From the IMG/VR virus record IMGVR_UViG_3300050343_000117, positions 1 through 64,000 of that record: DNA of 64,000 nt; one strand, written 5' to 3'. Within the stretch, counting starts at the first letter, position 1; each line of letters starts with the position of its first letter. This document shows positions 50,537 through 64,000 of the stretch, piece after piece. This DNA is from a virus. Below the pieces are notes generated by a model. It did no database searches. It was not told the DNA's origin and saw only the letters and a program-made list of their open reading frames with translations. The position numbers were made by a program, and so were the translations under genes.

Positions 50537-52041
50537 TTAAAAGTCCTCTTCTGTATCATCACTATTGGCATTTTCGGATTCGACCTGTTTTGCCATATCT
50601 TCGATGTCCTCATCATTGAACATCATTACATTTTTCATTACCCACTCACGTGAGAAGTATTCACCGACATAACTAGAGATTTGATCCATAGTCTGTAGAC
50701 GTTCACGCAGTAGTTCCGCGTCTTTCATCTCAGTGAAATGGTTGTCCCTAGAGAAGTCAACCTGAATTTGGTTCTTCCAAGCTTCCCAGTCCTGTTCAGT
50801 GCATATTCCTTTTAACAACAAGTTGCTTCTTTAGAATACCGATGAATAAACTGGGCAAACTTTTTACGCAGACGGTCAATGAACTTTTGGAACTTGACTT
50901 CGTCACGGTTGATCTCTGTTGTACGACCCAAAGAGAACTGAGACTCTTGCTCTAAACGCGATAGAGGTACGTTCAATGAACGATACAACTTCTTTTGAAA
51001 ATAAATGATATCGTCAATCTGACCTAGGTTTTCTCCGCCTGGTAATGTGCTTATCTCTGTGCCACGACCACCTTCTCGACGTGGTAACCAGAAGTCTTCG
51101 AGCATTGACATGTGCTTACGGTCATCTTTGATTTCACCATTGTTCGCATCATAAACAATCTTGTTACGATATCGAGACATGATGTCTTTAATATGTTGTT
51201 CCGCCTTACCCTTTGGTAAGTTACCCACGTCAATATAGAATATACGACGTTCGGGTGCACGTGCGAGACGATAGATGACCAATGAGTCTTCCATCATACG
51301 CAACTGGTTTACGGGTTTCATTGCCTTCTGTAGATACGACAGTACACGTTTCTTACTGGTGTCTAGAAGACCTGAAGTGACATACGAAACAGAATCCGAA
51401 GTTAACTTGATGCCGTTATTCGCACCGGCACGTTCCTGATAGATGTAGAAATCGTTAGTTTTGTCTACGACCTTTGCACCTGTCTTCGCATCCTTTTTAT
51501 ATTGCACCTCTTTTACTTTACGAATCTTAGTTGCATCAACAGGGCGTACCTCTTGAATACCTGCTTTTAGATTCGTGTCATTCACTACTAGGTGATGATA
51601 GATTCGTCCGTCGACATACCATGAACGGAACATATCGTGACCATACTCTTCGAAGTTCAACATGGAGACAACTCCATCGAACTCTTCTGTGATAGTCTTT
51701 TTGATTTTGTCTGAGTAGTATCAACCTTGTCTAGATTGATAGTGACGGAGCTTTCTAGTTCGGACGAAACGATTGCTTCGTTGATGATATCTTCGATTGC
51801 AGCATCACACTCTGGGTGTTCTGCCATACTGACGATATTTCTTGATTAATTCTTGGTTGTCCTTCGCAGCAGTGCCTTCCATGTCGACATACTGACCGAA
51901 GTACGAACCTGAGGCAGTGACGTATCCAGCGCCGTCCTCATCCACCTTCGGGACGATGGAAGGAGCTTTCTCGTTTTCTTGATTTAGTTTCTGAACCTTT
52001 TTTAGCTCAAACCCAAATGCTTGGAATACATTGTCTGCCAT
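50537..52041 (-). CDS. 20: Portal protein (T4 gp20), several frameshifts
   Basis: Fragments: 51805-52041 (MADNVFQAFGFELKKVQKLN), about 51664-51800 (HPECDAAIEDIINEAIVSSE), 50812-51663 (GRIYHHLVVNDTNLKAGIQE, RRIFYIDVGNLPKGKAEQHI, MSRYRNKIVYDANNGEIKDD) and 50537-50821 (CTEQDWEAWKNQIQVDFSRD). Three or more single-base indels are needed, near 51805, 51720 and 50820. The corrected length is about 501 residues versus 524 in T4. It forms the dodecameric DNA entry vertex. Confidence 0.93.
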
Positions 52042-52062
52042 ATTAACCTCTTATAATAAATT

Positions 52063-52082
52063 GGGGGTGGAGAACCACCCCC
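52063..52082 (-). terminator. Strong intercistronic hairpin between genes 19 and 20
   Basis: On the minus strand GGGGGTGG, loop TTCT, CCACCCCC gives eight G/C-rich pairs, followed by AATTTATT rather than a true U-tract. It may reduce readthrough from tail to portal genes or protect mRNA ends. Confidence 0.5.
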
Positions 52083-52103
52083 GTCATATTACTTATAATA
52101 CCT

Positions 52104-52636
52104 TTAACTAGTGGTATTTGACTCCCAGTACTGAATTTGAGAATGCTACTTCGAACTCTTCGACAGCATCGTTAGTCTCGTATGACTTAGCTCAATCGAT
52201 GACCAACACTGTTAGGAAAACAACCACGGAACTTGTATGTCTTTAGTACACTGAACCATCCTTATCTAGTTGTTCTACAACTAGGTCCGCTTGATATCCG
52301 ACTGGATTAGTAATCCCCGAATTCGCACTATGACCGTTGATTCCGTTCATCCATCGTTCCATTGCGTCACGTACTTCAAAATCGGTATCGTTCAATATGT
52401 TACTGTCCATCGGTTCGAAAGTACGATCACCTGCGATCTTTAGAACTGACGACCACGGAAAGGTACATCAATTACCGCCATGTTGATGCTGGTAATTGTG
52501 CAGCTTTACACATGAAAGATGTTAGTTCAACATCACCACCGGCGTACGCTGGGAAGTTTACGGTTGCGCGGAATAAGTTAGCACGCGCACCACCACCTTT
52601 TAGTTTTGCTTTGAAATCATCTACTCTTAATGACAT
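52104..52636 (-). CDS. 19: Tail tube protein (T4 gp19), several frameshifts
   Basis: ATG 52634-52636 starts MSLRVDDFKAKLKGGGARAN, then LFRATVNFPAYAGGDVELTS and CKAAQLPAS. After an indel near 52480 come VIDVPFRGRQF and IAGDRTFEP, then NDTDFEVRDAMERWMNGING and VGYQADLVVEQLDKDGSV; after more indels KTYKFRGCFPNSVG and QYWESNTTS with TAA at 52104-52106. These are all diagnostic of gp19. The span fits about 177 residues. It builds the inner tail tube. Confidence 0.85.
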
Positions 52637-52648
52637 GATTATTTCCCC

Positions 52649-54211
52649 TTATACTGTGCCAACGACTTCTTCAAACTCAACACCAGTTCGAACAGCTACG
52701 AAGTTTAGAGTTACGTAGTTGATTGAACGTGCTGGTTTGATGAAGCAAGATGCAATAAATTCGTTGCGGTCAACAACTTCTGGAGTATTGTTTGTATCAT
52801 CACAAACAACACGGAAGTCAGTGATACCACGACGACCCTGAATTTCACGTAGGAATGGTTCTACGATGTTGACGAACTCTGCACGAGTAAACTCATCGTT
52901 GAATTCAAACATTACGTTTCTCCAGCGCGACTAATCGCTCGTTCGATGACTAGGAATAGTCGACGAACGTTGATTCGATCGAATGCAGATGGACGTGAAT
53001 AGGTGAGTCTTGTCACCATACAGCATAATGCCCTGGCCAGGCATGCTGACGATTGGGTTGATACGCCCGACTTGTACATAACATCACGTTCTGTTTTGCT
53101 TGGGTTAACTAGTACCTCTGTGACACCTACGTATTGACCGCGGCGTGAACCTGCTGGTGAGAACCAAGGAGCAGAGACTGCATCTGTTGCAGCCATAACA
53201 CCCGCTGTTGAAGATGCTGCTGGAATCCATTCATACTTATCTTCGTATTTGTTGTAAACTTTGATGTGGTTACCATCAACAATTAGATAAGAAGAATTTT
53301 CTGACAAAGCAGAAACATAACTTCCAATACCGGCCGAAATACTGTCATTTAAAAGATCTTGATATTTCACGGATGCTACCGCAACACAATCTTTTCGTTG
53401 CACTGCAATCGAGTTTAAGTATTTGTGGATACTTGGAGCATTGAACTGTGCACCAGCTGGAGCAATTAGGAAATCGATTTGAATGTTTTCTTTGTTTGCG
53501 AATGCGTCATATCCCGTAGTGTACTCACCTTGTGAGAGTTGTCCGTTGCTATCACCACCTGCCAATTGGTATTCACCTAAAATAGGTGCTGAGTCTATAT
53601 TACCCGCTCCGTCGTCGAAGTCTACTGTTGCAACAGTAACCCAAGATGATTGTGAATTGATAACGTCAAGTACAAAGTTGTTAGAACCGTTTTCTAGTCT
53701 AGCACCCTGTTCAACAGATAAAAATTCAAACTGTTCTAGAACCGTGTGTGGAGTAGTTGAACTGTCAACAACAATGACGTGAATCTCGTTTTTAGAATCG
53801 TCTGGAGCTGATGAGAATTGCGATTCGTAATCCCATCCTGAAAATTCCGCTCCACCAGCAACAGAGACAAGAATGTTATCTCCAAGTTTGCCTGGATTTC
53901 TTTGCGGTAAATAGACCGAACGAAGCATATGCTTGATCATCACTTCCGGCACGAACAACGTACAGAGAAGAAGAATATTTTAGGAAATACGAAGCGGAGA
54001 GAAAATCTCCGGAGTACGCATCACCCATGTCTGGAGTGCCAAAGACAGCAGCCAGTTCAGATTCGTTACCGACTAGAACAGGTGTGTTTACTGGTCCCCA
54101 ATTAAAGTCACCTACAATAGCGCCAGTTGTAGAAGTGACCGAAGGTACTGTGCCTGTTAGGTCAATTTCTTTTATCTGAACTGCTGGTGACTCGGAGAAT
54201 TTAAGAGTCAT
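52649..54211 (-). CDS. 18: Tail sheath protein (T4 gp18), several frameshifts
   Basis: Fragments 53876-54211 (LKFSESPAVQIKEIDLTGTV, GAIVGDFNWGPVNTPVLVGN), 52912-53958 (KLGDNILVSVAGGAEFSGWD, LVNPSKTERDVMYKSGV, then out-of-frame and back to RINVRRLFLVIERAISRAGE) and 52649-52912 (MFEFNDEFTRAEFVNIVEPF, RPARSIN-like PARSINYVTLNFVAVRTGVE). One extra A in a run near 53890 and a lost base near 52915 explain two breaks. The corrected length is about 520 residues. It forms the contractile sheath. A late box lies upstream at 54276. Confidence 0.93.
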
Positions 54212-54295: not shown

Positions 54296-55903
54296 TTACC
54301 ATTCATTAGGGTTATAGTCAGTCCAATCCATGCTATATGGGTCGGACAAGTCTGAAAGAGGAACATAATCACTACCATCATCGATTATTCCGAACGGTGG
54401 TATATCATCCTCAATTTCTTTCATACGTTGATCAAATAACATCTGTTTGATATCCACGTCAGCAACATTACCAAATGATTGCGTCCCAACAAAGTATCCA
54501 AACATTACTAGATTCATCATTAAGTCATCATGATTACCATCACTGGCCTCAAATGATGTTCCTCTGGATACAAACGTAGATATCTCCATGATAGTATTCT
54601 CATCAACAATATCTAGTTTGTGGCCTTCGATAATATCCTTAATTGAAGAGCATCCTATTCTCTTTACCTTCCTGTCCATACGGATACCGATAGCATCTGC
54701 TTTGACCGCAGACTCTAGGTGAATATTCTCATATTCTAGATCCTGATAAAGACCTACGCACACTACCATACCTTGGTCATTATTCTCTACGACGACATAC
54801 GCCTCATTGTATATTGTTGCATACTTGTATATAATGTTAGGATATAGTATAGGTGATATTCTATTGTTACGATATACACAAACCTGTCTGAAAGGTTGTA
54901 CCGATACATCAATTATATTAAATGTAGAATAATCCTGACCCCGCCCTTGACAAACATCGACAGTCATGATATACTGGTGTTCTTCAATAGGTTCTTGATA
55001 CACTAAAAGATCTCCACCTTCATATCGATGGATAGGTTCTCTGGCACGTAAGTCAAGCAACACTTGACCCTCAATAAGAGTATTACCAGTACCAAAGAAA
55101 GTATTACCAAACTCTTGGTCAAACTGCAACTGGGAAGTGTTAGCAATAGTCTGTGCTTTCCACTTATCATCTCGGCCAGGAACATCCCACCAGTCAACAC
55201 GGAATGGTTTGTATTCATTGACCTTCTGTACCGCACCTTCCCATAGTTTCTGATACGTGTTACCTATACCGTTCGCAGTACTTGTTATGATAACTTTTGT
55301 ATCTTTACCAGATGAGATTACTGGATACGTAGATGTGTAGAACTCTGCGGCATTCTCTACAAACGCAAACTCATCTAGGAATAGAAGGTTGACCGACATA
55401 CCACGAATGGATGACCCAGAAGTTGCCGCAGCAATGATGCGAGAGTTGTTAGAGAACTCGATAGAACCTTTGTTCAGTGCTTTACACCCAGGCTGCAAGA
55501 AGAACGGAAGATTCTCTAACATGAGTGTTACACGAGATAACATCTCACGTGCGGTGGCACCTTTGTTTGCAAGGATTGCGATGGTCTTTTCAGGATGGAA
55601 TAGTGTATACCATAGAAGGTATCCTACAGAGGAAATTGATTTGCCTGACTGTCGACATGCTAGAACAATAGAGAATCGATTATCATTGAAGTGGTCAAAC
55701 ATCTTCTCCTGATAATCGTACAGTTTGAATGGCACTAGACCTTTATCTAGGTGCACGACCTTAACGTACTTCTTACAGAAATACGAAGGGTTCTCCATAC
55801 ATTTTTTATATTCGCGGAGTTTCTTTTTGTCCCACTCCTCTGCAACACCATCTCGTTTGACTTGTGGGTTACCTAGATAGGAATTCTTAGTATAGGATGT
55901 CAT
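54296..55903 (-). CDS. 17: Terminase large subunit (T4 gp17)
   Basis: A 535-residue protein. FCKKYVKVVHLDKGLVPFKL, the Walker A FSIVLACRQSGKSISSVGYL, the Walker B SVNLLFLDEFAFVENAAEFY, the coupling motif VIITSTANGIGNTYQKLWEG and the nuclease YIMTVDVCQGRGQDYSTFNI are present. ESAVKADAIGIRMDRKVKRI follows. The frame is intact. It packages DNA through the portal and makes headful cuts. Confidence 0.95.
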   Translation of the reverse strand: MTSYTKNSYLGNPQVKRDGVAEEWDKKKLREYKKCMENPSYFCKKYVKVVHLDKGLVPFKLYDYQEKMFDHFNDNRFSIVLACRQSGKSISSVGYLLWYTLFHPEKTIAILANKGATAREMLSRVTLMLENLPFFLQPGCKALNKGSIEFSNNSRIIAAATSGSSIRGMSVNLLFLDEFAFVENAAEFYTSTYPVISSGKDTKVIITSTANGIGNTYQKLWEGAVQKVNEYKPFRVDWWDVPGRDDKWKAQTIANTSQLQFDQEFGNTFFGTGNTLIEGQVLLDLRAREPIHRYEGGDLLVYQEPIEEHQYIMTVDVCQGRGQDYSTFNIIDVSVQPFRQVCVYRNNRISPILYPNIIYKYATIYNEAYVVVENNDQGMVVCVGLYQDLEYENIHLESAVKADAIGIRMDRKVKRIGCSSIKDIIEGHKLDIVDENTIMEISTFVSRGTSFEASDGNHDDLMMNLVMFGYFVGTQSFGNVADVDIKQMLFDQRMKEIEDDIPPFGIIDDGSDYVPLSDLSDPYSMDWTDYNPNEW

Positions 55904-56283
55904 TCATCTGAGTCTTGATCAATTACTTTCTCATCTCCCAACAGCATACGCTGAAGGTCTGTAGTGGAACCGACGAATAGATTATTATTAGTAGTAGTAG
56001 AATCGGCAGGTTTGTCTTCTTTGGTGAGTTCTTTCTGCTTTTTGTTGAGGTCCATCAACTTGTCATTGACATCTGCGATGCCTTTGATCATACCAGATAG
56101 AACCTCAAACGCACGAGGATGTTCACTCTCACGTGCGACTTCTATCATGAGTTCTAGAGACTCACGACCTTTTTCAATTAGGTCATAATAAGTATCACGA
56201 GAGTACTCATAGTCTTGTTCGTGGACGAAGTTCTTTTTCTGTTCTTCGTCAAATACAGCTGGCGGTTTACTGTTGTCTCTCAT
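55900..56283 (-). CDS. 16: Terminase small subunit (T4 gp16)
   Basis: A 127-residue protein: YYDLIEKGRESLELMIEVAR, SEHPRAFEVLSGMIKGIADV, then NDKLMDLNKKQKELTKED and LFVGSTTDLQRMLLGD. The EHPRAYEVxxxMIKxxxDVNxxLMDL pattern is diagnostic. It recognises DNA and regulates gp17. It overlaps gene 17 by four bases. Confidence 0.9.
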   Translation of the reverse strand: MRDNSKPPAVFDEEQKKNFVHEQDYEYSRDTYYDLIEKGRESLELMIEVARESEHPRAFEVLSGMIKGIADVNDKLMDLNKKQKELTKEDKPADSTTTNNNLFVGSTTDLQRMLLGDEKVIDQDSDE

Positions 56284-56299
56284 AATATATATCTATGTC

Positions 56300-58336
56300 T
56301 TATATAAAGTTAGGCTTCGGTAACGTCCAACTCGACGCACCGTTATCAAACTGATCATATGAAGTCACACTAGACACGTCCCATCCACTCAAATCTTGGT
56401 TGAATGATGTTGCGTTCTCGAACATCTCACCCATATCTGTTACACTAGATGTGTCCCAGTTGGCGATGTCTGCGCTTCCGTTATTGCTGAACGAAGGACA
56501 GTCTTGGAACATTTCGTTCATAGTGTCCACGTTAGATACGTTCCAAGCACCGATGTTGATGTCAAAGTCTTCGTTCTCTTCAAACATCTCTGACATATCT
56601 TTGACATTAGAAACATCCCATCCACCGATATCTGCACCGAAAGGAGCTGGAACACCAGTCCACACAGAACCAGCAACGGCAAACATTCCTGACATATTGA
56701 CAGCACTTCCTGTGTTCCAACTAGAAATATCTGAGTTTGTTACTGTGGCATTGAAATAAGTATTTTTGAACGTGTCGTAGAAACTAATCACATTAGACAC
56801 ATCCCAACTACCGACACCTTGACCCGTAAATTCAGATGCATCAAACATATCTGCCATTGTTCTTGCGTTAGAAGTGTCCCATCCGCTTAGGTCTTGATCG
56901 AATGAAGATTCGGTGAAGGTTTGATCAAATCTGAATACAGCTGAGGTGTCCCAACTACCAATAGGTTGGTTGAAGACGTCATTGGCATAAAACATTGACT
57001 GTAAAATTACACCGTGGACACCAGCGCTGCTCAGTGGGTAACCACCTGTCGGAGCGTAATCGTCCCAATCATGCATGTAATCAAAGTCTGAGTAAGTGTT
57101 TTGATTGATTGTGACACCAGAGTCCGTCCAGTAAGACGCAACTACGTCAGTGATAGGTGTGGTTTTATCTGCACAAATAGTCCATCCACTAATGTCCTGA
57201 TTGAATACTGCTTCACGGAACATAGATGTGAAGTCTCTATTTTTAGAAACTTCCCACCCAGTAATATCACTCGTGTTAGATGCAAAGTTTGACTCTCTAA
57301 GCATCTCTCTTGCGGTTACGACTTCGGACATATCTAAATTGGTGATATTCGCACTACCCAAAGTAGATGACTGCGAAGACTCATCGAAGAACATCCAGTC
57401 GGTATGCATCAATGGCTCATCTGAAGTGAAACCTACGTTTGGAGTCCAAGTGTATCCCGGCGGAGCGTAATGAGTCCTCCAATCGATGGATGTCGGGTCG
57501 TTTGTTACACCTTCGATACTATATGAGTATACTGTTGGTGGTTCTGGTATATACCTAGGACCATCCGGTGAAAAACTTGTTACTTGTGTATTAAACCCAT
57601 AGTCTCCGTCTGGACTAACATCTATAGGATCTGGGGTTGTATTTACAATAGATCCCGCAGTATCTTCTGGATCATCTATAAGATTCAGGTTCGTGTTCAC
57701 CTCACGGATAATAGGTCCTGTGTTCTCTGGCCCATAGAAGTTGACTTTCATTTCAAACGTCAATGTGTATACGATCGTCCGTCTTTGCTCAATCGCACCT
57801 TCATAATCATCAGCAAAGTCTAGTCCTGATAATATGACAGGGACATCTTCCTTTATGTCTGGTTCATCAGCAAAAGGTTTTACGGTCAACGTGTATTGTG
57901 GTGCGAAGTATGGTATAATTTGCTCTACGACTTGTAGTGCATCATCCTGAGATTTGGCATATACTGATAGAGAGAATCCTACGGTGTAAGGAACTCCGAC
58001 ATAGATCTTTCTCTTAGATCCGGTCTCAGTAGATATAACAGATCCAAATCCATTAACTTTAGGCAACTGTCGTGTTGCATCATATGCGATAGAAGAAATT
58101 TCGAAAGACATACGAGGAAGCTTTACAGCAACTCTTCTTTCTGCACTTTCTCCGTTCTCCATTTCAGATAGACGTTCTAAGAATGACCTTTTAGGAGCAT
58201 AGGATAATGGTACTTTAACCTGTGACAATACTTTACCGTTCGAGTCTGTTCTCAAAACATGTATGTCATCGAACATTGAACCGAATACGGCAACGCATGT
58301 ACGAACGCGTTTGTGGTAGAAGTGTCCTCCCATCAT
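56300..58336 (-). CDS. 15: Tail terminator gp15 fused to BspA/DUF285-type repeat domain
   Basis: A continuous 678-residue frame. Residues 1-225 are a normal gp15: GGHFYHKRVRTCVAVFGSMF, KVPLSYAPKRSFLERLSEME, LPRMSFEISSIAYDATRQLP, VEQIIPYFAPQYTLTVKPF and DYEGAIEQRRTIVYTLTFEM. T4 gp15 ends near here (272 residues). After a Pro/Asp-rich linker (225-300), about eight repeats follow with the signature WDVSNVxxMxxMFxxxxxFNQDLSGWD (for example FNQDISGWTICAD, FDQDLSGWDTSNARTMADMF, IGAWNVSNVDTMNEMFQDCP), the DUF285/BspA-like leucine-rich repeat. Gp15 caps the tail at the neck, so the repeats would project there and may bind host surface molecules or neighbours. A sequencing artefact is unlikely, as the frame is unbroken. 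Confidence 0.85.
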   Translation of the reverse strand: MMGGHFYHKRVRTCVAVFGSMFDDIHVLRTDSNGKVLSQVKVPLSYAPKRSFLERLSEMENGESAERRVAVKLPRMSFEISSIAYDATRQLPKVNGFGSVISTETGSKRKIYVGVPYTVGFSLSVYAKSQDDALQVVEQIIPYFAPQYTLTVKPFADEPDIKEDVPVILSGLDFADDYEGAIEQRRTIVYTLTFEMKVNFYGPENTGPIIREVNTNLNLIDDPEDTAGSIVNTTPDPIDVSPDGDYGFNTQVTSFSPDGPRYIPEPPTVYSYSIEGVTNDPTSIDWRTHYAPPGYTWTPNVGFTSDEPLMHTDWMFFDESSQSSTLGSANITNLDMSEVVTAREMLRESNFASNTSDITGWEVSKNRDFTSMFREAVFNQDISGWTICADKTTPITDVVASYWTDSGVTINQNTYSDFDYMHDWDDYAPTGGYPLSSAGVHGVILQSMFYANDVFNQPIGSWDTSAVFRFDQTFTESSFDQDLSGWDTSNARTMADMFDASEFTGQGVGSWDVSNVISFYDTFKNTYFNATVTNSDISSWNTGSAVNMSGMFAVAGSVWTGVPAPFGADIGGWDVSNVKDMSEMFEENEDFDINIGAWNVSNVDTMNEMFQDCPSFSNNGSADIANWDTSSVTDMGEMFENATSFNQDLSGWDVSSVTSYDQFDNGASSWTLPKPNFI

Positions 58337-59211
58337 TACGATATATCTCCAAATGGGTTGGTCTCAGTGAAATCGACAAAGTCATTTGCGAAGTCGTCAA
58401 ACACTTCATTCTGTGACAGTGGTTGAATTTCGTTTATACCTTCGTTTATGGTGACTAAATTAAATGAAGCATACATTCCGATAACTGGCATATCAGTTGT
58501 CCATAGATGGAATTTACCATCTGTAGCGCCAGTATGTGCTATAGTCAACAATCGAGTTTGACTGTTGAATGATGTGACCTCTCCTTCTATTCGATAATCA
58601 CCAAAGTCTTGATAAACCTTTTCGCCCGGATAGTAGTAGTTATCTTCACCTGTATTTTCCATAACCAATTCGTATTGGAATGCGTGTTCACGTTCAACAC
58701 GATCAATAGCATCGATACCAGTGTCAAAATCTTCATCCGAAAACTCGAACAACTCGCAAGTCATACGGAATTGTGGTAACTGGGATAATTGATAGAACGG
58801 TGATTCAGTCTCGACCTTCTTGACCTCAAATAGAGATTCAGACAATGGGAGATATATCACATCACCCTCTCTAGGGCGGAATTGCGCTTCTGATAGACGA
58901 TCACCAATGAGCTGTCTCCATCGACGACGTGCAATAACAAAGGTTGCTTGGTCTCTTAGTTCAATACCAAACTTGGTGAATAGGTCTCCGTCACCTTCAA
59001 ACGATTCACCGTTTTCGATGTAGACTTCGACTTTATATGCGTCAGAGAATTGAGACTCAATAGAATCTAGGAAGATCTCTTCTCTCTCAACAACTTCTCT
59101 CGGCAAGTAATATACGTCTTGACCATAGAATTGGATTGCTTCTATTAAAAGATCTTCGTAGAGGTTTTGTTCTTCTCTATGCTTTAAACTGATATATGGA
59201 TTAGTTGCCAT
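58336..59211 (-). CDS. 14: Neck protein (T4 gp14)
   Basis: A 291-residue protein, close to T4 gp14 (256). NLYEDLLIEAIQFYGQDVYY, LPREVVEREEIFLDSIESQF, KFGIELRDQATFVIARRRWR and GDVIYLPLSESLFEVKKVET are typical. ETNPFGD ends the protein. It completes the head-tail connector with gp13. It shares its boundary bases with the gp15 fusion gene and follows gene 13 by four bases. Confidence 0.92.
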   Translation of the reverse strand: MATNPYISLKHREEQNLYEDLLIEAIQFYGQDVYYLPREVVEREEIFLDSIESQFSDAYKVEVYIENGESFEGDGDLFTKFGIELRDQATFVIARRRWRQLIGDRLSEAQFRPREGDVIYLPLSESLFEVKKVETESPFYQLSQLPQFRMTCELFEFSDEDFDTGIDAIDRVEREHAFQYELVMENTGEDNYYYPGEKVYQDFGDYRIEGEVTSFNSQTRLLTIAHTGATDGKFHLWTTDMPVIGMYASFNLVTINEGINEIQPLSQNEVFDDFANDFVDFTETNPFGDIS

Positions 59212-59214
59212 GTC

Positions 59215-59985
59215 TTACCCCATGAAGAACATCGGACCTTCGTCTTCTTCGTTACGGAATTTTTCCATCATTCGTTCGATGTCTGCTAGCGCATCTTCAT
59301 ATATTAGACGAGCATTAACGGTCACCCCGCCAGGCAATGCCATACCATCAAATTTAATTAGGTTGGTGCCCCATTGACGCTTGATCAATGCGGTTGCATA
59401 TTCTTTTAGGAATCGGTGATTCCATAGCGAGTTATATTCGTTTACTGTTTCGTCTGGATTACGAATACCATAAACCTCAAAGATAACATAGTCATCTACT
59501 TTAAGGTTCGTTTTGGAAACATGTAAATTAACACGATTATATTGTCTGTCAAATGTAATCTGAGGTGTACCACCTAGTTTCATATCTAATAGTGCTAGAT
59601 TTTGTTGCATCTGTTCATAGTGCGCAAGGTCACCTAGCATACCCCCTTGACGGGTAAAGTCAGAAATGGTATATGCCATCAACTGCCATGCATCACTGAA
59701 CCATCCGGTATGAGCATTTCCAAATGTCATAGGGATCATACGAACGATGGCGGAAAGATCTAGATCGTCACTAAAATCCACATACTGATTATCGACATCG
59801 GTCTGAGTCAATTGGTGCTTTAGATAGTATCGTTTAGATCCATCTGGATGATGTTCACGGAACCACTGCAACGCCTCATCAATTCGGTCGTCGAGTTGTT
59901 CTTCGTCAATGTTGACTTCAACTACCGGATGCCCTAAGGCACGCAGGCAGTAATCAATCAATTCTTCTCTACTTGTTGAATACAT
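59215..59985 (-). CDS. 13: Neck protein (T4 gp13)
   Basis: A 256-residue protein. MYSTSREELIDYCLRALGHP, VVEVNIDEEQLDDRIDEALQ, WFREHHPDGSKRYYLKHQ, IFEVYGIRNPDETVNEYNSL and RQWGTNLIKFDGMALPGGVT are diagnostic. It is the head-completion protein at the portal-neck junction. Tandem late promoters lie just upstream. Confidence 0.93.
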   Translation of the reverse strand: MYSTSREELIDYCLRALGHPVVEVNIDEEQLDDRIDEALQWFREHHPDGSKRYYLKHQLTQTDVDNQYVDFSDDLDLSAIVRMIPMTFGNAHTGWFSDAWQLMAYTISDFTRQGGMLGDLAHYEQMQQNLALLDMKLGGTPQITFDRQYNRVNLHVSKTNLKVDDYVIFEVYGIRNPDETVNEYNSLWNHRFLKEYATALIKRQWGTNLIKFDGMALPGGVTVNARLIYEDALADIERMMEKFRNEEDEGPMFFMG

Positions 59986-60095: not shown

Positions 60096-63000
60096 TTAGT
60101 TTACAATAGTACCATTCACATCGTATACATCGATACGATAGTGAGATGGTGCCGCGCCACCTAGTTTGTCAGCGTCATCTGAAGCAACAGACTCAGCAAC
60201 ACGTAGTGAAGACTCAGCTTCTACTTCGTCAACCTTGATCTCACCAGTTACAGATGAGTAAGTGATGCACAGACCACCAGATAGACAATCTTTAGTACGT
60301 TGTTCTGTCCAGTACTTGTTGATTGATCCTTCTGAGACGTTATCAGTATTCCACGCTTCGATTGCAACTACACCAGATTCTAGTGCAGAGATGCGACCAG
60401 TGTTAGAGTTGACAACACCTGTGATCGAACCATCAGCAGATTGGAATGCAGCAACGATTTCTGTTAGAGAATCTAGTGACGCTGGGTCAGTGTTCTCTTT
60501 GATGAAATCGAGTTGCGTCTGAAGACCAGTGTCCGCGTTTTGACGATCAATGACTTCTTGTGCAAGGTCACTAGCGATTTGACCTTCTGCTTGAGTTGCA
60601 CGAGCAACTTCAGTCGAAAGGTCAGAAGTCAACTGAGTATCCGCTGCAGAACGAGTAGCCGCTTCTAAAGAAACTTCAGAAGAGTTTGCATTGTCACCAG
60701 CGATTCGAGCAGCAGTTTCGACAGCAAGAGCAGCCGAATGGTCTGAATCTGTTCCGATTCGAGTGGCCATTTGTGATTGTAGAGTATCGATCTCACCTTC
60801 AGCAGTAGTTAAACGACCATCGTGAGCAGTTACTTGGGTCTGTAGTGCAGCATCACCAGCACCACGTGCAGACTCTTCAGCAGACAAGTCTGTTTCAAGT
60901 GCAGTGATGTTGTTTTCAGCAGTAGTCAATCGACCACCGTTTGCAGTGATAACACCAGATAGATCTGAGTCAGCATTTTCAAACGCAGATACGATCTCAA
61001 CCAATGTGTCTAGAGATGCAGGGGAACCGGCAATAATAGTACCGACCTGATTCTGTAGACCAATGATGTCAGACTCTAGAGCAGCATCAGCAGAACTACG
61101 TGCAGATGTTTCTGACACGATGTTCGCAGCGTTGACTGCTTCCGCAGATGTTGCACGAGCAACTTCAGCAGTAATCTGTGACTGTAGACCAGATACGTCA
61201 CCGGACTGAAGTACTTCAAGAGCGTCTATCTCTGCTTGTAGAGCTGCGTCAGCAGAACTACGTGTACTTGCTTCCGAACTGACGGCCGCAATTCGAGCAG
61301 CAACTTCTGCGTCATGATCAGTTTGACTTGCTTTGGTTCCAATGGATGTTGCTACTGTCGCAGAGAAGTTCGCGTCGTCACCAAGTGCCGCAGCTAGTTC
61401 GTTCAACGTATCCAATGCCGCAGGGGCAGCGTCTACAGTTGCCGCAACAACACCATCAACATACCCTTTGTTAGCAGCTTGTCCAACGTCTGTCGGAGTA
61501 TCAACTCTAACATCCGAACCACTTAGCATGACAATACCGTCTTGGAAGTCGAATGTTCCGCCAGGACCAGTAGCAGTTATTGAACCACCAGATGCAATCT
61601 GAAGTTGATCTGTTGCCAAACGACCACTTACTAGATCAGTCCACTCGTAGTCTGTACCAGTCCACTTGACGAATTCGCCAGCATTAGCAGTAGGAATGTT
61701 TAAGTGTTGGTCGATCTCTGCCTTAGTGGCATTACCGAAACCACCACCAGTGATTGTTGACGAACCGAAGTTTACTATAGAACCTTCGAAATCGACAGTT
61801 CCTGTTTGAACTTTTAGGTCATTCGATTCAATGTGATCAATGAATCCACGAGCAGCATAAACATCATTAGCGTTCTTGATGTTGTTACTATCCATGTCAA
61901 GTTCAGCAGTCATCTGAATATCAGTTGAACCTGAAGATGTGCTGATACCAGAAGTACGTGAGTTTGCAGCAGCAATTGCCGCAGCGTTTGCGACTTCTGC
62001 CGCAGTCGCACGAGCGACTTCTGCGTCATGATCTACTTGACTTGCCTTAGTAGCAATTGAAGTAGTGACAGTTGATGCGAAGTTCGCGTCGTCACCAAGT
62101 GCCGCAGCTAGTTCGTTCAATGTGTCTAGTGCCGCAGGAGCAGCATCTACTGTAGCAGCAACAACCTGATCAGCATATGCCTTGGCATCTGCTTCAGCAG
62201 CGTCTGCTTTCGCGGTTGCGTCAGCGGATGCAGTTGAGATTGCTTCTGACTTAGCAGTAGCGATTGCAGTAGTTAGAGATGAAGTATCTCCAGACTGAGA
62301 TTGAGACAATGTGTCTAGTTCTGCGTGTACTTCGTTAACCGCACCTGCAACAGTCTGAGCAGTAGTGTCTAGTGCAATTATAGATGCACCCTGCTGGAAG
62401 ATTTTAAAGTCGTCGAATGCGACCGCAGTCCCATTGACACCAAAGTAAAAATCTACATATGCATAGGTGACGCCTGCTGGCTGAGGCCAACTGTGGGTTC
62501 TTTGGTGATAGTCTTCCCCAGTACCAGAATATAATAGATTAACCTGATACTCATGAGGATGATCAGCGGTTTCCCACTTGACATCAATACGGTGACCATG
62601 ATTCAAAGGACCAGCAACTTGTTGTACGAACGTATTCAGTTCGTACGTTGCACTTGGCTCTAATCCAGTTAAGACCATTCTTGCGACTGTTCCACCACCA
62701 TTCAGATTTCTGATTATGAAACTCTGACCAGTTTGTCCTTCTTCAATCCATGTCGGCCAAGTTGTATCACCAGTATACGGGCTATTTGACGCAAACTGCG
62801 TACCGTCTGGGTGTGCCGTGATAGTCACGTTCTGTGTTATTGGACTAGAAGAAGTCCAAACAGATGGTGAATATACACTAGGTATTTCTGTATTACCTTC
62901 ACCAACGAATGCGTCTAGTGTTGCAATTGCAGAAGTGTTTGCTCCGATAGATGCTGTCACTGTCGAAGCGAAGTTTGCGTCGTCACCTAGTGCAGCTGCC

Positions 63001-64000
63001 AACTCGTTAAGAGTATCCAGTGCAGCAGGAGCGGCGTCAACAGTTGCAGCGACAACTTGATCAGCATATGCTTTAGCACTTGTTTCTGCAGCATCTGCCT
63101 TAGTAGTTGCGTCTGCTGAAGCACTTGCTTCTGCCGCATCTGCCTTAGAAGTTGCGTCTGCTGAAGCAGTTGAGATTGCTTCTGACTTAGCAGTTGCAAC
63201 ATCATTAGAAAGGTCATTAAGTACATCGACAACTGACTTTTGCGCACCTAAAATTTCTACTGATGCATCATGCATAATTTCAGAGAAATGATAAAATCCA
63301 CTGGCAGTTCCAGAAATCTGATCATCGTTGAACGAAGATACTGGCGAAGAAGGGTTCTCTGCGTCATACGCATAAACCCATGACTTACCTTCATTAGGAT
63401 TAGTATCCCAATTATTCATCCACGCATCATCTCCGCGATCGCTCACATATACCTTATCGCCGATTTTTGTCATAGACCAAGTAAATCTGTTTGATAACGC
63501 ACCATTATAGTTGCCGCCTTGTGGTGCGGTAATTTCAAGAGGTGATGATGAAAGGTTATTCTTGTCGTATACGTAAAGAGAACCTTGCTGACTATCGTAA
63601 CTGGAACTACTCGTGCCAGGTGATGCAAATCGCGCACCAACAAACAACTTAGTGTCTGTTTCTACCATAGAATGGCCAAACGCGTCATCTTGAGGAGAAC
63701 CTAATTGGGTATTATACCAAGAATTTTCTGGCGACATAACTGATTCTAGATACGCCGATGAACCAGAGTTTAACGAAGATAATGAGTATACATACAAACC
63801 GCCAGTTTCAGAAGGACTACTTCCTGTTGCAACATACAACTTAGTCCCATCTTGAGATAACATTAAGTTTTCTGCATAACTATAAAAACCATTTCCAGAA
63901 ATAAGGTTTACAGGAGTTCCGGAAAAGCGTTTGTAAATCAAACACTGCAAGAGCACCACTACCATCTGAAGTGTCATTATTTCCATATTGCAATATGGAA
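60096..64000 (-). CDS. Large tail fibre/adhesin with propeller and coiled repeats, 5' end outside window
   Basis: The main frame runs from about 63930 to 60096; one extra T near 63925 hides its continuation to the window edge (GNNDTSDGSGALAVFDLQ joins SGTPVNLISGNGF). The N-terminal part has propeller blades (QGSLYVYDKNNLSSSPLEIT). Then come Ala-rich coiled segments, a galactose-binding-like jelly-roll (LEPSATYELNTFVQQV, WETADHPHEYQVNLLYSGTG, VDFYFGVNGTAVAFDDF), three near-identical modules VVAATVDAAPAALDTLNELA, then AALGDDANF, and long heptad coils (ARSSADAALESDIIGLQNQV). It is probably a trimeric long fibre for host recognition. A terminator follows. Confidence 0.75.
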   Translation of the reverse strand, partial: PYCNMEIMTLQMVVVLLQCLIYKRFSGTPVNLISGNGFYSYAENLMLSQDGTKLYVATGSSPSETGGLYVYSLSSLNSGSSAYLESVMSPENSWYNTQLGSPQDDAFGHSMVETDTKLFVGARFASPGTSSSSYDSQQGSLYVYDKNNLSSSPLEITAPQGGNYNGALSNRFTWSMTKIGDKVYVSDRGDDAWMNNWDTNPNEGKSWVYAYDAENPSSPVSSFNDDQISGTASGFYHFSEIMHDASVEILGAQKSVVDVLNDLSNDVATAKSEAISTASADATSKADAAEASASADATTKADAAETSAKAYADQVVAATVDAAPAALDTLNELAAALGDDANFASTVTASIGANTSAIATLDAFVGEGNTEIPSVYSPSVWTSSSPITQNVTITAHPDGTQFASNSPYTGDTTWPTWIEEGQTGQSFIIRNLNGGGTVARMVLTGLEPSATYELNTFVQQVAGPLNHGHRIDVKWETADHPHEYQVNLLYSGTGEDYHQRTHSWPQPAGVTYAYVDFYFGVNGTAVAFDDFKIFQQGASIIALDTTAQTVAGAVNEVHAELDTLSQSQSGDTSSLTTAIATAKSEAISTASADATAKADAAEADAKAYADQVVAATVDAAPAALDTLNELAAALGDDANFASTVTTSIATKASQVDHDAEVARATAAEVANAAAIAAANSRTSGISTSSGSTDIQMTAELDMDSNNIKNANDVYAARGFIDHIESNDLKVQTGTVDFEGSIVNFGSSTITGGGFGNATKAEIDQHLNIPTANAGEFVKWTGTDYEWTDLVSGRLATDQLQIASGGSITATGPGGTFDFQDGIVMLSGSDVRVDTPTDVGQAANKGYVDGVVAATVDAAPAALDTLNELAAALGDDANFSATVATSIGTKASQTDHDAEVAARIAAVSSEASTRSSADAALQAEIDALEVLQSGDVSGLQSQITAEVARATSAEAVNAANIVSETSARSSADAALESDIIGLQNQVGTIIAGSPASLDTLVEIVSAFENADSDLSGVITANGGRLTTAENNITALETDLSAEESARGAGDAALQTQVTAHDGRLTTAEGEIDTLQSQMATRIGTDSDHSAALAVETAARIAGDNANSSEVSLEAATRSAADTQLTSDLSTEVARATQAEGQIASDLAQEVIDRQNADTGLQTQLDFIKENTDPASLDSLTEIVAAFQSADGSITGVVNSNTGRISALESGVVAIEAWNTDNVSEGSINKYWTEQRTKDCLSGGLCITYSSVTGEIKVDEVEAESSLRVAESVASDDADKLGGAAPSHYRIDVYDVNGTIVN
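61368..63060 (-). repeat. Three direct repeats of about 90 bases inside the tail fibre gene
   Basis: The protein module VDAAPAALDTLNELAAALGD is encoded at about 61368-61455, 62080-62170 and 62970-63060. The DNA copies share long stretches such as CGTCGTCACCAAGTGCCGCA and differ mainly at third positions. Such repeats can recombine and change fibre length. Confidence 0.7.

What the first reader, a model, noticed from the sequence alone, without database searches (positions are those of the whole stretch)
56300..58336. Tail terminator gp15 fused to a BspA/DUF285 repeat domain
The first 225 residues are an ordinary gp15, but the same unbroken frame continues for about 450 more residues of DUF285-type repeats, otherwise known from bacterial surface and adhesion proteins. 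This would place six copies of a large repeat arm at the head-tail neck, a position normally held by fibritin whiskers. It suggests a new host-binding or fibre-retraction device.
Basis: partly seen in the sequence, partly recalled or inferred. Interest (0 to 1): 0.8.

Follow-up and report, generated by a model that had tools for sequence, protein, structure and literature searches.

The report
Phage neck protein with swappable arm
In marine T4-like phages, the ring protein that caps the tail just under the head carries an extra repeat arm of the kind found on bacterial surface proteins, and related phages gain, lose and trade such arms at exactly this point, so it is probably an exchangeable sticky appendage at the virus neck.

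Summary
One open frame (56300-58336, minus strand, 678 aa) joins a complete T4-type gp15 (Pfam PF16724, E 3e-61) to about ten DUF285/PARCEL repeats (PF03382, E 9e-77). Thirteen other IMG/VR contigs hold the complete 673-696 aa fusion, so it is not an assembly error.

The neighbourhood adds more. Almost identical gp15 genes exist without the arm. Fused genes sit in at least four separate places of the gp15 tree. Pairs whose gp15 halves are saturated at silent sites have arms with dS of only 0.05-0.22. The arm is therefore a cassette exchanged laterally onto gp15. Two lineages carry apparent excision scars. In a second gp15 clade, 60 of 80 loci have extended gp15, with Ig-like domains in all seven scanned; three proteins add an unrelated DUF285 arm that near-identical sisters lack. 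In other T4-like phages the same module is a separate gene right after gp15.

Best reading: the gp15 C-terminus is a display site for exchangeable, probably adhesive neck appendages (six copies, as gp15 is hexameric). Adhesion is inferred, not shown. Fibritin and the fibritin-binding insert of gp13 are missing. Fibre retraction has no specific support. This is a new variant of a known kind.

The parts
57662..58336 (-). gp15 core, residues 1-225: tail terminator / tail sheath stabiliser
   Evidence: PF16724 residues 5-243 E 3e-61; phrog_227 E 2.4e-66; T4 gp15 in PDB by sequence, E 4e-23
57581..57661 (-). gp15 C-terminal tail, residues 226-252 (TPDPIDVSPDGDYGFN motif), shared by fused and unfused gp15; cassette exchange begins around here
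   Evidence: T4 gp15 203-245 contacts gp14 (PMC12270204)
57533..57580 (-). linker, residues 253-268, Pro-containing here; in sister phages L008-L013 it is a (Glu-Pro)n linker of variable length
56303..57532 (-). DUF285/PARCEL (BspA-like) repeat module, residues 269-678, ending in the conserved SWTLPKPNF(I)
   Evidence: PF03382 E 9e-77; TIGR02167 and NF045896; AlphaFold model of residues 264-678 with pLDDT 81.5, pTM 0.84
56288..56302 (-). stop codon and short spacer (TAAGACATAGATATA) that travels with the module; the same DNA remains as a scar after gp15 in L028 and L049
58336..59211 (-). gp14 head closure, docking partner of gp15 in T4
   Evidence: PF11649, phrog_460; alignment to T4
59215..59985 (-). 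gp13 head-tail adaptor, lacking the insert that aligns with T4's fibritin-binding domain III
   Evidence: phrog_211; alignment A3
55900..56283 (-). gp16 small terminase; its conserved 5' end marks the downstream edge of the exchanged cassette
   Evidence: PF11053, phrog_445

Best explanation
The protein is a gp15 (the hexameric tail terminator at the neck) whose C-terminus carries a transplanted DUF285/PARCEL repeat arm on a Pro-rich, probably flexible linker. Each virion should display up to six arms around the neck. The arm is an accessory, exchangeable display domain. It is gained, lost and traded between T4-like phages as a cassette running from about codon 205-225 of gp15 to the first codons of gp16, most simply by homologous recombination in the conserved flanks. 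A second gp15 clade uses the same anchor point for Ig-like domains, with or without a different DUF285 arm. The most likely job is weak adhesion to cell-surface or environmental glycans or proteins, raising the chance of productive contact by the tail fibres, much as Ig-like or carbohydrate-binding decorations are thought to do. Shown by sequence: the fusion, its replication, presence/absence polymorphism, lateral exchange, purifying selection, the second clade, and missing fibritin. Inferred: virion incorporation, six copies, outward exposure and adhesion.
For: Fusion intact in 13 further contigs. Lateral exchange: window vs L006, gp15 dS 1.84 but module dS 0.048; window vs L008/L011, gp15 saturated but module 0.135/0.205. 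Nucleotide identity to L011/L012 is about 53-79% over gp15, 89-100% over most of the module, then lower again in gp16/17. Presence/absence: the window's nearest gp15 (L019-L022, 98% aa) lacks the arm. On the gp15 tree fused tips need 4 parsimony steps for 5 tips, no more clustered than shuffled labels (mean 4.9). L010/L011 against L062/L056: arm inserted, 3' flank mostly 96-100% identical. Scars in L028 and L049. Frame kept under selection: module dN/dS mostly 0.15-0.57. Second clade: 60 of 80 gp15 loci longer than 295 aa; seven representatives scanned all show Big_9 Ig domains; L237, L325 and L326 add DUF285. L237 vs L325: gp15 saturated, Ig2 dS 0.19, DUF285 dS 0.08; L327 vs L329: gp15 saturated, Ig2 dS 0.01. 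The two DUF285 arms are only about 36% identical at best. Neighbour-gene route: the same module is a separate gene directly after gp15 in L098 and L100, and elsewhere in C48C1. Surface-protein nature: NCBIfam PARCEL surface-protein models; BFVD matches are named BspA-family surface proteins. Neck without fibritin.
Against: No proteomics, cryo-EM or binding data exist. Adhesion is inferred from domain type alone, and DUF285 has no assigned biochemical activity. The path of the gp15 C-terminus in the virion was not examined; outward exposure rests on bulk. The gp15 half of the structure model is poor and no hexamer was modelled. A protease could remove the arm before assembly. Homologous recombination as the transfer route is inferred from sequence mosaics.
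Confidence: 0.6

Rival explanations
1. The arm replaces fibritin whiskers: it contacts the long tail fibres and helps attach or retract them.
For: It sits at the neck, fibritin is missing, and gp13 lacks the fibritin-binding insert. T4 whiskers promote fibre attachment and retraction (PMC3004832).
Against: Near-identical phages lack the arm and in another clade unrelated Ig domains occupy the site. A fibre-docking part would be expected to coevolve with one fibre partner, whereas this module jumps between strongly diverged phages. P-SSM2 gp13 also lacks the insert and its gp15 relatives carry no arm.
Confidence: 0.1
2. The module is a selfish or neutral coding repeat element (PARCEL-like) that spreads by recombination and is merely tolerated at the gp15 C-terminus.
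For: Lateral mobility, presence/absence and scars. PARCELs were described as mobilome-associated palindromic coding repeats (PMC2996958).
Against: Module dN/dS is well below 1. No inverted repeats of 14 nt or more in this frame. At most one DUF285 gene was found in each record searched, unlike a proliferating element. Ig domains recur at the same site.
Confidence: 0.15
3. The arm is a structural reinforcement of the head-tail joint or sheath top, not exposed for binding.
For: gp15 203-245 contacts gp14 in T4 (PMC12270204). In phage XM1 the terminator C-terminus adds a strand to the sheath (PMC10457771).
Against: Sister phages with closely similar gp15 and neighbouring genes do without it. (EP)n linkers of variable length separate it from gp15 in several lineages. 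The tail that would make such contacts is present in unfused gp15 too.
Confidence: 0.1
4. Assembly chimera or sequencing error fused two adjacent genes.
For: The contig has apparent frameshifts in gp18, gp19 and gp20, and in other phages the module is a separate gene next to gp15.
Against: Intact fusion frame in 13 other contigs from different samples with gp15 down to 74% identity, selection on the module, and an independent second fusion in three contigs.
Confidence: 0.01

Closest known systems
T4 gp15, tail terminator / sheath stabiliser (Pfam PF16724; PDB 4HUD, 9MKB)
   Same: Same family, gene order and position between gp14 and gp16; top fold and sequence match.
   Different: T4 gp15 is 272 aa and ends in a short Pro-rich tail; here about 410 further residues of repeats follow.
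DUF285 / PARCEL / BspA-like surface proteins (PF03382, TIGR02167; PMC2996958)
   Same: Same repeat family of about 25 residues; horizontal spread; surface-protein setting.
   Different: Here the module is anchored to a core virion protein. Palindromic DNA was not found by the simple scan. Phage pir03 (PMC7765460) and other phages carry DUF285 as separate proteins.
Neck passage structure with carbohydrate-binding modules, lactococcal 936 and TP901-1 phages (PMC6669499)
   Same: Neck appendages with a conserved anchor and swappable C-terminal modules of several folds; one neck CBM was shown to bind.
   Different: A dedicated trimeric collar-fibre protein in siphophages; here the tail terminator itself is the anchor, in T4-like myophages.
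Ig-like domains on phage structural proteins (Hoc, major tail protein, modular gut-phage adhesins PMC13370021)
   Same: Promiscuous exchangeable surface domains added to virion proteins; clade B gp15 uses Ig-like (Big_9) domains.
   Different: No report of gp15 as carrier was found in the papers searched; DUF285 is an unrelated repeat fold.
T4 fibritin whiskers (wac) and A-1(L) neck fibres (PMC10966104)
   Same: Fibrous appendages at the neck.
   Different: They attach through gp13 domain III (T4) or gp5 (A-1(L)), as separate trimeric proteins; here no fibritin and a covalent fusion to gp15.

Membership tests
T4 gp15 tail terminator (PF16724) | Full-length match to the family profile | tested here: met
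   residues 5-243, profile 1-231 of 245, E 3e-61
T4 gp15 tail terminator (PF16724) | Synteny gp13-gp14-gp15-gp16-gp17 | tested here: met
T4 gp15 tail terminator (PF16724) | Hexameric ring at the top of the sheath | not testable with these tools
   Known for T4 (PMC3004832); no complex modelling available
DUF285 / PARCEL repeat protein | Tandem repeats of about 25 residues above curated cut-offs | tested here: met
   PF03382 255 bits (cut-off 25), TIGR02167 65 bits (cut-off 30)
DUF285 / PARCEL repeat protein | Palindromic motifs in the coding DNA | tested here: inconclusive
   No inverted repeats of 14 nt or more; the original test used MEME palindromes with imperfect dyads, not available here
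DUF285 / PARCEL repeat protein | Horizontal distribution | tested here: met
   module dS 0.05-0.22 between phages with saturated gp15
Fibritin / whisker neck fibre | Fibritin C-terminal domain (PF07921) | tested here: not met
   none in own record, C48C1 or L011 record; T4 control E 2e-34
Fibritin / whisker neck fibre | gp13 domain III docking site | tested here: not met
   the T4 insert is a gap in the window's gp13
Neck-borne carbohydrate-binding appendage (NPS type) | Recognisable CBM fold | tested here: not met
   no CBM in Pfam; no PDB fold match at E <= 0.001, best weak matches are leucine-rich repeats
Neck-borne carbohydrate-binding appendage (NPS type) | Binding to host cells | not testable with these tools
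   needs protein and host

The most novel reading that the evidence does not exclude
The tail-terminator C-terminus of T4-like phages is a general exchange site for neck-mounted adhesins: unrelated surface folds (DUF285 arms of two separate origins, Ig-like pairs) are repeatedly plugged into gp15 by lateral cassette exchange, giving a fast-evolving host- or environment-binding layer that is independent of the tail fibres and stands where other T4-like phages carry fibritin.
Probability: 0.45. Interest if true: 0.75.

Novelty: new variant of a known kind. Interest (0 to 1): 0.62.

Why it matters
Tail terminators are regarded as conserved assembly parts, yet here one serves as the mount for exchangeable surface domains. 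That points to a second, fast-swapping contact layer on T4-like marine phages besides tail fibres and Hoc-type decorations, and gives a defined place (gp15 C-terminus to gp16 start) to look for it in other genomes. It also provides natural with/without pairs of closely related phages, which makes the role of neck appendages directly testable.

Tried and rejected
Assembly chimera: rejected by replicate contigs.

Single ancestral fusion followed by losses only: rejected as the sole story because module dS is far below gp15 dS; some losses remain likely (scars).

Positive selection on the arm: pairwise dN/dS is mostly 0.15-0.57, elevated relative to gp15 but not above 1, so not claimed.

PARCEL palindromes: none found by the repeat scan.

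Fold identification of the arm: no significant PDB match; BFVD returns other BspA-type viral proteins.

Fusions in sequenced phages: no record of 50,697 covers 80% of the fused protein or of the Ig-extended gp15. Cyanophage-type (280-283 aa) and Melnitz-type gp15 (273 aa in nearly all) showed no extension.

Host genomes: one scan gave only two unhelpful hits. The host of the window's phage was not identified.

Function of the short N-terminus of stand-alone copies (MANQILAGAVVNAG...): only C48C1 found among phage records, unresolved.

Full report
WHAT IS THERE. The frame 56300-58336 on the minus strand codes for 678 aa without a stop. Residues 5-243 match the T4 gp15 tail sheath stabiliser family (PF16724, E 3e-61) and the rest matches DUF285 (PF03382, E 9e-77). 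PHROGs agree (tail sheath stabilizer, E 2.4e-66), and the only PDB sequence relatives are T4 gp15 entries. Gene order is that of T4: gp13 59985-59215, gp14 59211-58336, gp15, gp16 56283-55900, gp17 55903-54296. The gp15-type part ends near residue 252 with a tail that unfused relatives share; a short linker follows; the repeat module spans about 269-678 with ten recognisable repeats. NCBIfam names the repeats PARCEL (TIGR02167, NF045896).

IT IS NOT AN ARTEFACT. This mattered because the same contig has broken frames in gp18, gp19 and gp20 compared with phage C48C1. A scan of IMG/VR with the whole protein gave 18 contigs with relatives of the fused protein; 13 of them (L001-L013) hold the complete fusion as a frame of 673-696 aa. 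Three of these are identical to the window and may be the same population, but the others differ, down to 74% identity in gp15. In the window's 137 kb record the gp15 gene is the only DUF285 gene.

THE ARM IS AN EXCHANGED CASSETTE. In the same scan most loci had gp15 of 252-260 aa ending just after the shared tail, among them L019-L022 with gp15 98% identical to the window's. Codon comparison shows the gp15 half of fused pairs from different lineages at dS 1.8 or saturated, while the arms differ by dS 0.05-0.22; fourfold sites differ from the window by 59-69% in gp15 against 2-13% in the arm. Nucleotide identity to L011 or L012 is about 53-79% over gp15, 89-100% over most of the arm and lower again in gp16/17. 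On a gp15 codon tree, fused sequences fall in at least four places, next to unfused sisters such as L008/L066, L010/L062 and window/L021, and fused labels are no more clustered than shuffled ones (4 steps for 5 tips, shuffled mean 4.9). L010/L011 against L062/L056 show an inserted arm with mostly 96-100% identical DNA on the gp16 side, the exchange starting near codon 205-225 of gp15. L028 and L049 lack the arm but keep the DNA of its last codons and spacer (CCCAACTTTATTTAAGACATAGATATA), which reads as a scar of loss. Module dN/dS is mostly 0.15-0.57, so the reading frame is under purifying selection. Homologous recombination through the conserved gp15 tail and gp16 start is the simplest route (inference).

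THE SITE IS USED AGAIN. Using the gp15 of a more distant contig (L098) as query, 60 of 80 loci have gp15 longer than 295 aa; most complete ones are 416-460 aa. Seven representatives scanned with Pfam all have the PF16724 core followed by bacterial Ig domains (Big_9/cadherin-like). Three proteins (L237, L325, L326; 625-636 aa) carry a DUF285 arm after the Ig pair, and their sisters (L327, L328; L329, L330) stop before it. Here too the C-terminal domains travel: L237 and L325 have saturated gp15 but DUF285 dS 0.08, and L327 and L329 have saturated gp15 but second-Ig dS 0.01. This DUF285 arm is only about 36% identical at best to the window's, so the two clades recruited different arms. Cyanophage-type gp15 (280-283 aa) and almost all Melnitz-type gp15 (273 aa) have no extension, so the habit is clade-limited.

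WHERE THE ARM MAY COME FROM. In L098 and L100 the same module (47-57% identical) is a separate gene directly after gp15 with its own short N-terminus, and L104 has it a few genes downstream. In phage C48C1, whose terminase is 89% identical to the window's, gp15 is unfused (258 aa) and the module is a stand-alone 420-aa gene elsewhere, ending in the same SWTLPKPNF motif. Among the records searched, each has at most one DUF285 gene. Fusion of a neighbouring gene is therefore a plausible origin (inference).

NECK CONTEXT. T4 gp15 is a hexamer that binds the last sheath ring (PMC3004832), and residues 203-245 contact gp14 (PMC12270204). T4 whiskers bind domain III of gp13 (same paper). Fibritin_C is not found in the window's record, C48C1 or the L011 record, while T4 scores E 2e-34, and the gp13 insert corresponding to domain III is a gap. 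The neck therefore probably lacks T4-type whiskers. Six arms at the neck follow from the hexamer if the fused protein is incorporated; outward exposure is inferred because six 45 kDa arms cannot sit in the tail lumen.

STRUCTURE. The isolated module is modelled with pLDDT 81.5 and pTM 0.84 as a repeat protein with very little regular secondary structure. No PDB entry matches at E <= 0.001; the best weak matches are leucine-rich repeats. The viral library returns BspA-type surface proteins of phages and giant viruses. The full-length model has a poor gp15 half, although it still finds T4 gp15 first.

HOW IT PROBABLY WORKS. The gp15 ring serves as a mount. A linker lets the arm reach out from the neck, and the arm sticks weakly to something on cells or in the surroundings. 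Presence/absence between closely related phages, replacement by an unrelated fold in another clade, and lateral exchange all fit an accessory display domain, in the manner of Ig-like decorations and of the neck-borne carbohydrate-binding modules of lactococcal phages (PMC6669499). Binding itself is not shown. Fibre retraction is possible but has no specific support.

NOVELTY. DUF285 proteins in phages are known (for example pir03, PMC7765460), Ig-like decorations are known, and neck adhesins are known in siphophages. No paper found in the searches describes gp15 carrying such domains, and no record of 50,697 phage genomes covers 80% of either type of extended gp15. The literature searched is open-access only. 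I rate it a new variant of a known kind.

Noticed in passing
L172-L244 (for example L206:4902-6284, L175:5052-6341): A second clade of T4-like gp15 has C-terminal extensions in 60 of 80 loci; all seven scanned carry Ig-like (Big_9) domains, and the second Ig domain is itself laterally exchanged.
   Followed up: partly
L237:1451-3328, L325:3001-4911, L326: gp15 + Ig pair + DUF285 (625-636 aa), with near-identical sisters lacking the DUF285 part.
   Followed up: yes
window 50549-54211: gp18 (sheath), gp19 (tube) and gp20 (portal) are each split over several frames compared with phage C48C1: probable sequencing indels in this contig.
   Followed up: partly
window 60096-63986: A 1296-aa tail-fibre-like protein with repeated ATVDAAPAALDTLNELAAALGDDANF segments sits just before gp13, where T4 has wac (fibritin).
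   Followed up: no
L098:3884-5035, L100:1400-4033: The DUF285 module is a separate gene directly downstream of gp15, with the short N-termini MSKICIKKGQG / METKIHFKNSN and up to 877 aa.
   Followed up: partly
L105:2417-4957; L082:11953-13215: Proteins sharing a short N-terminus (MANQILAGAVVNAGMVIAGVDAD) followed by different C-terminal domains, perhaps a virion-attachment tag for variable cargo; L105:5413-7113 has a similar start.
   Followed up: partly
window 58336-59211: gp14 has roughly 60 extra residues in its C-terminal part compared with T4 gp14, the part that contacts gp15 in T4.
   Followed up: no
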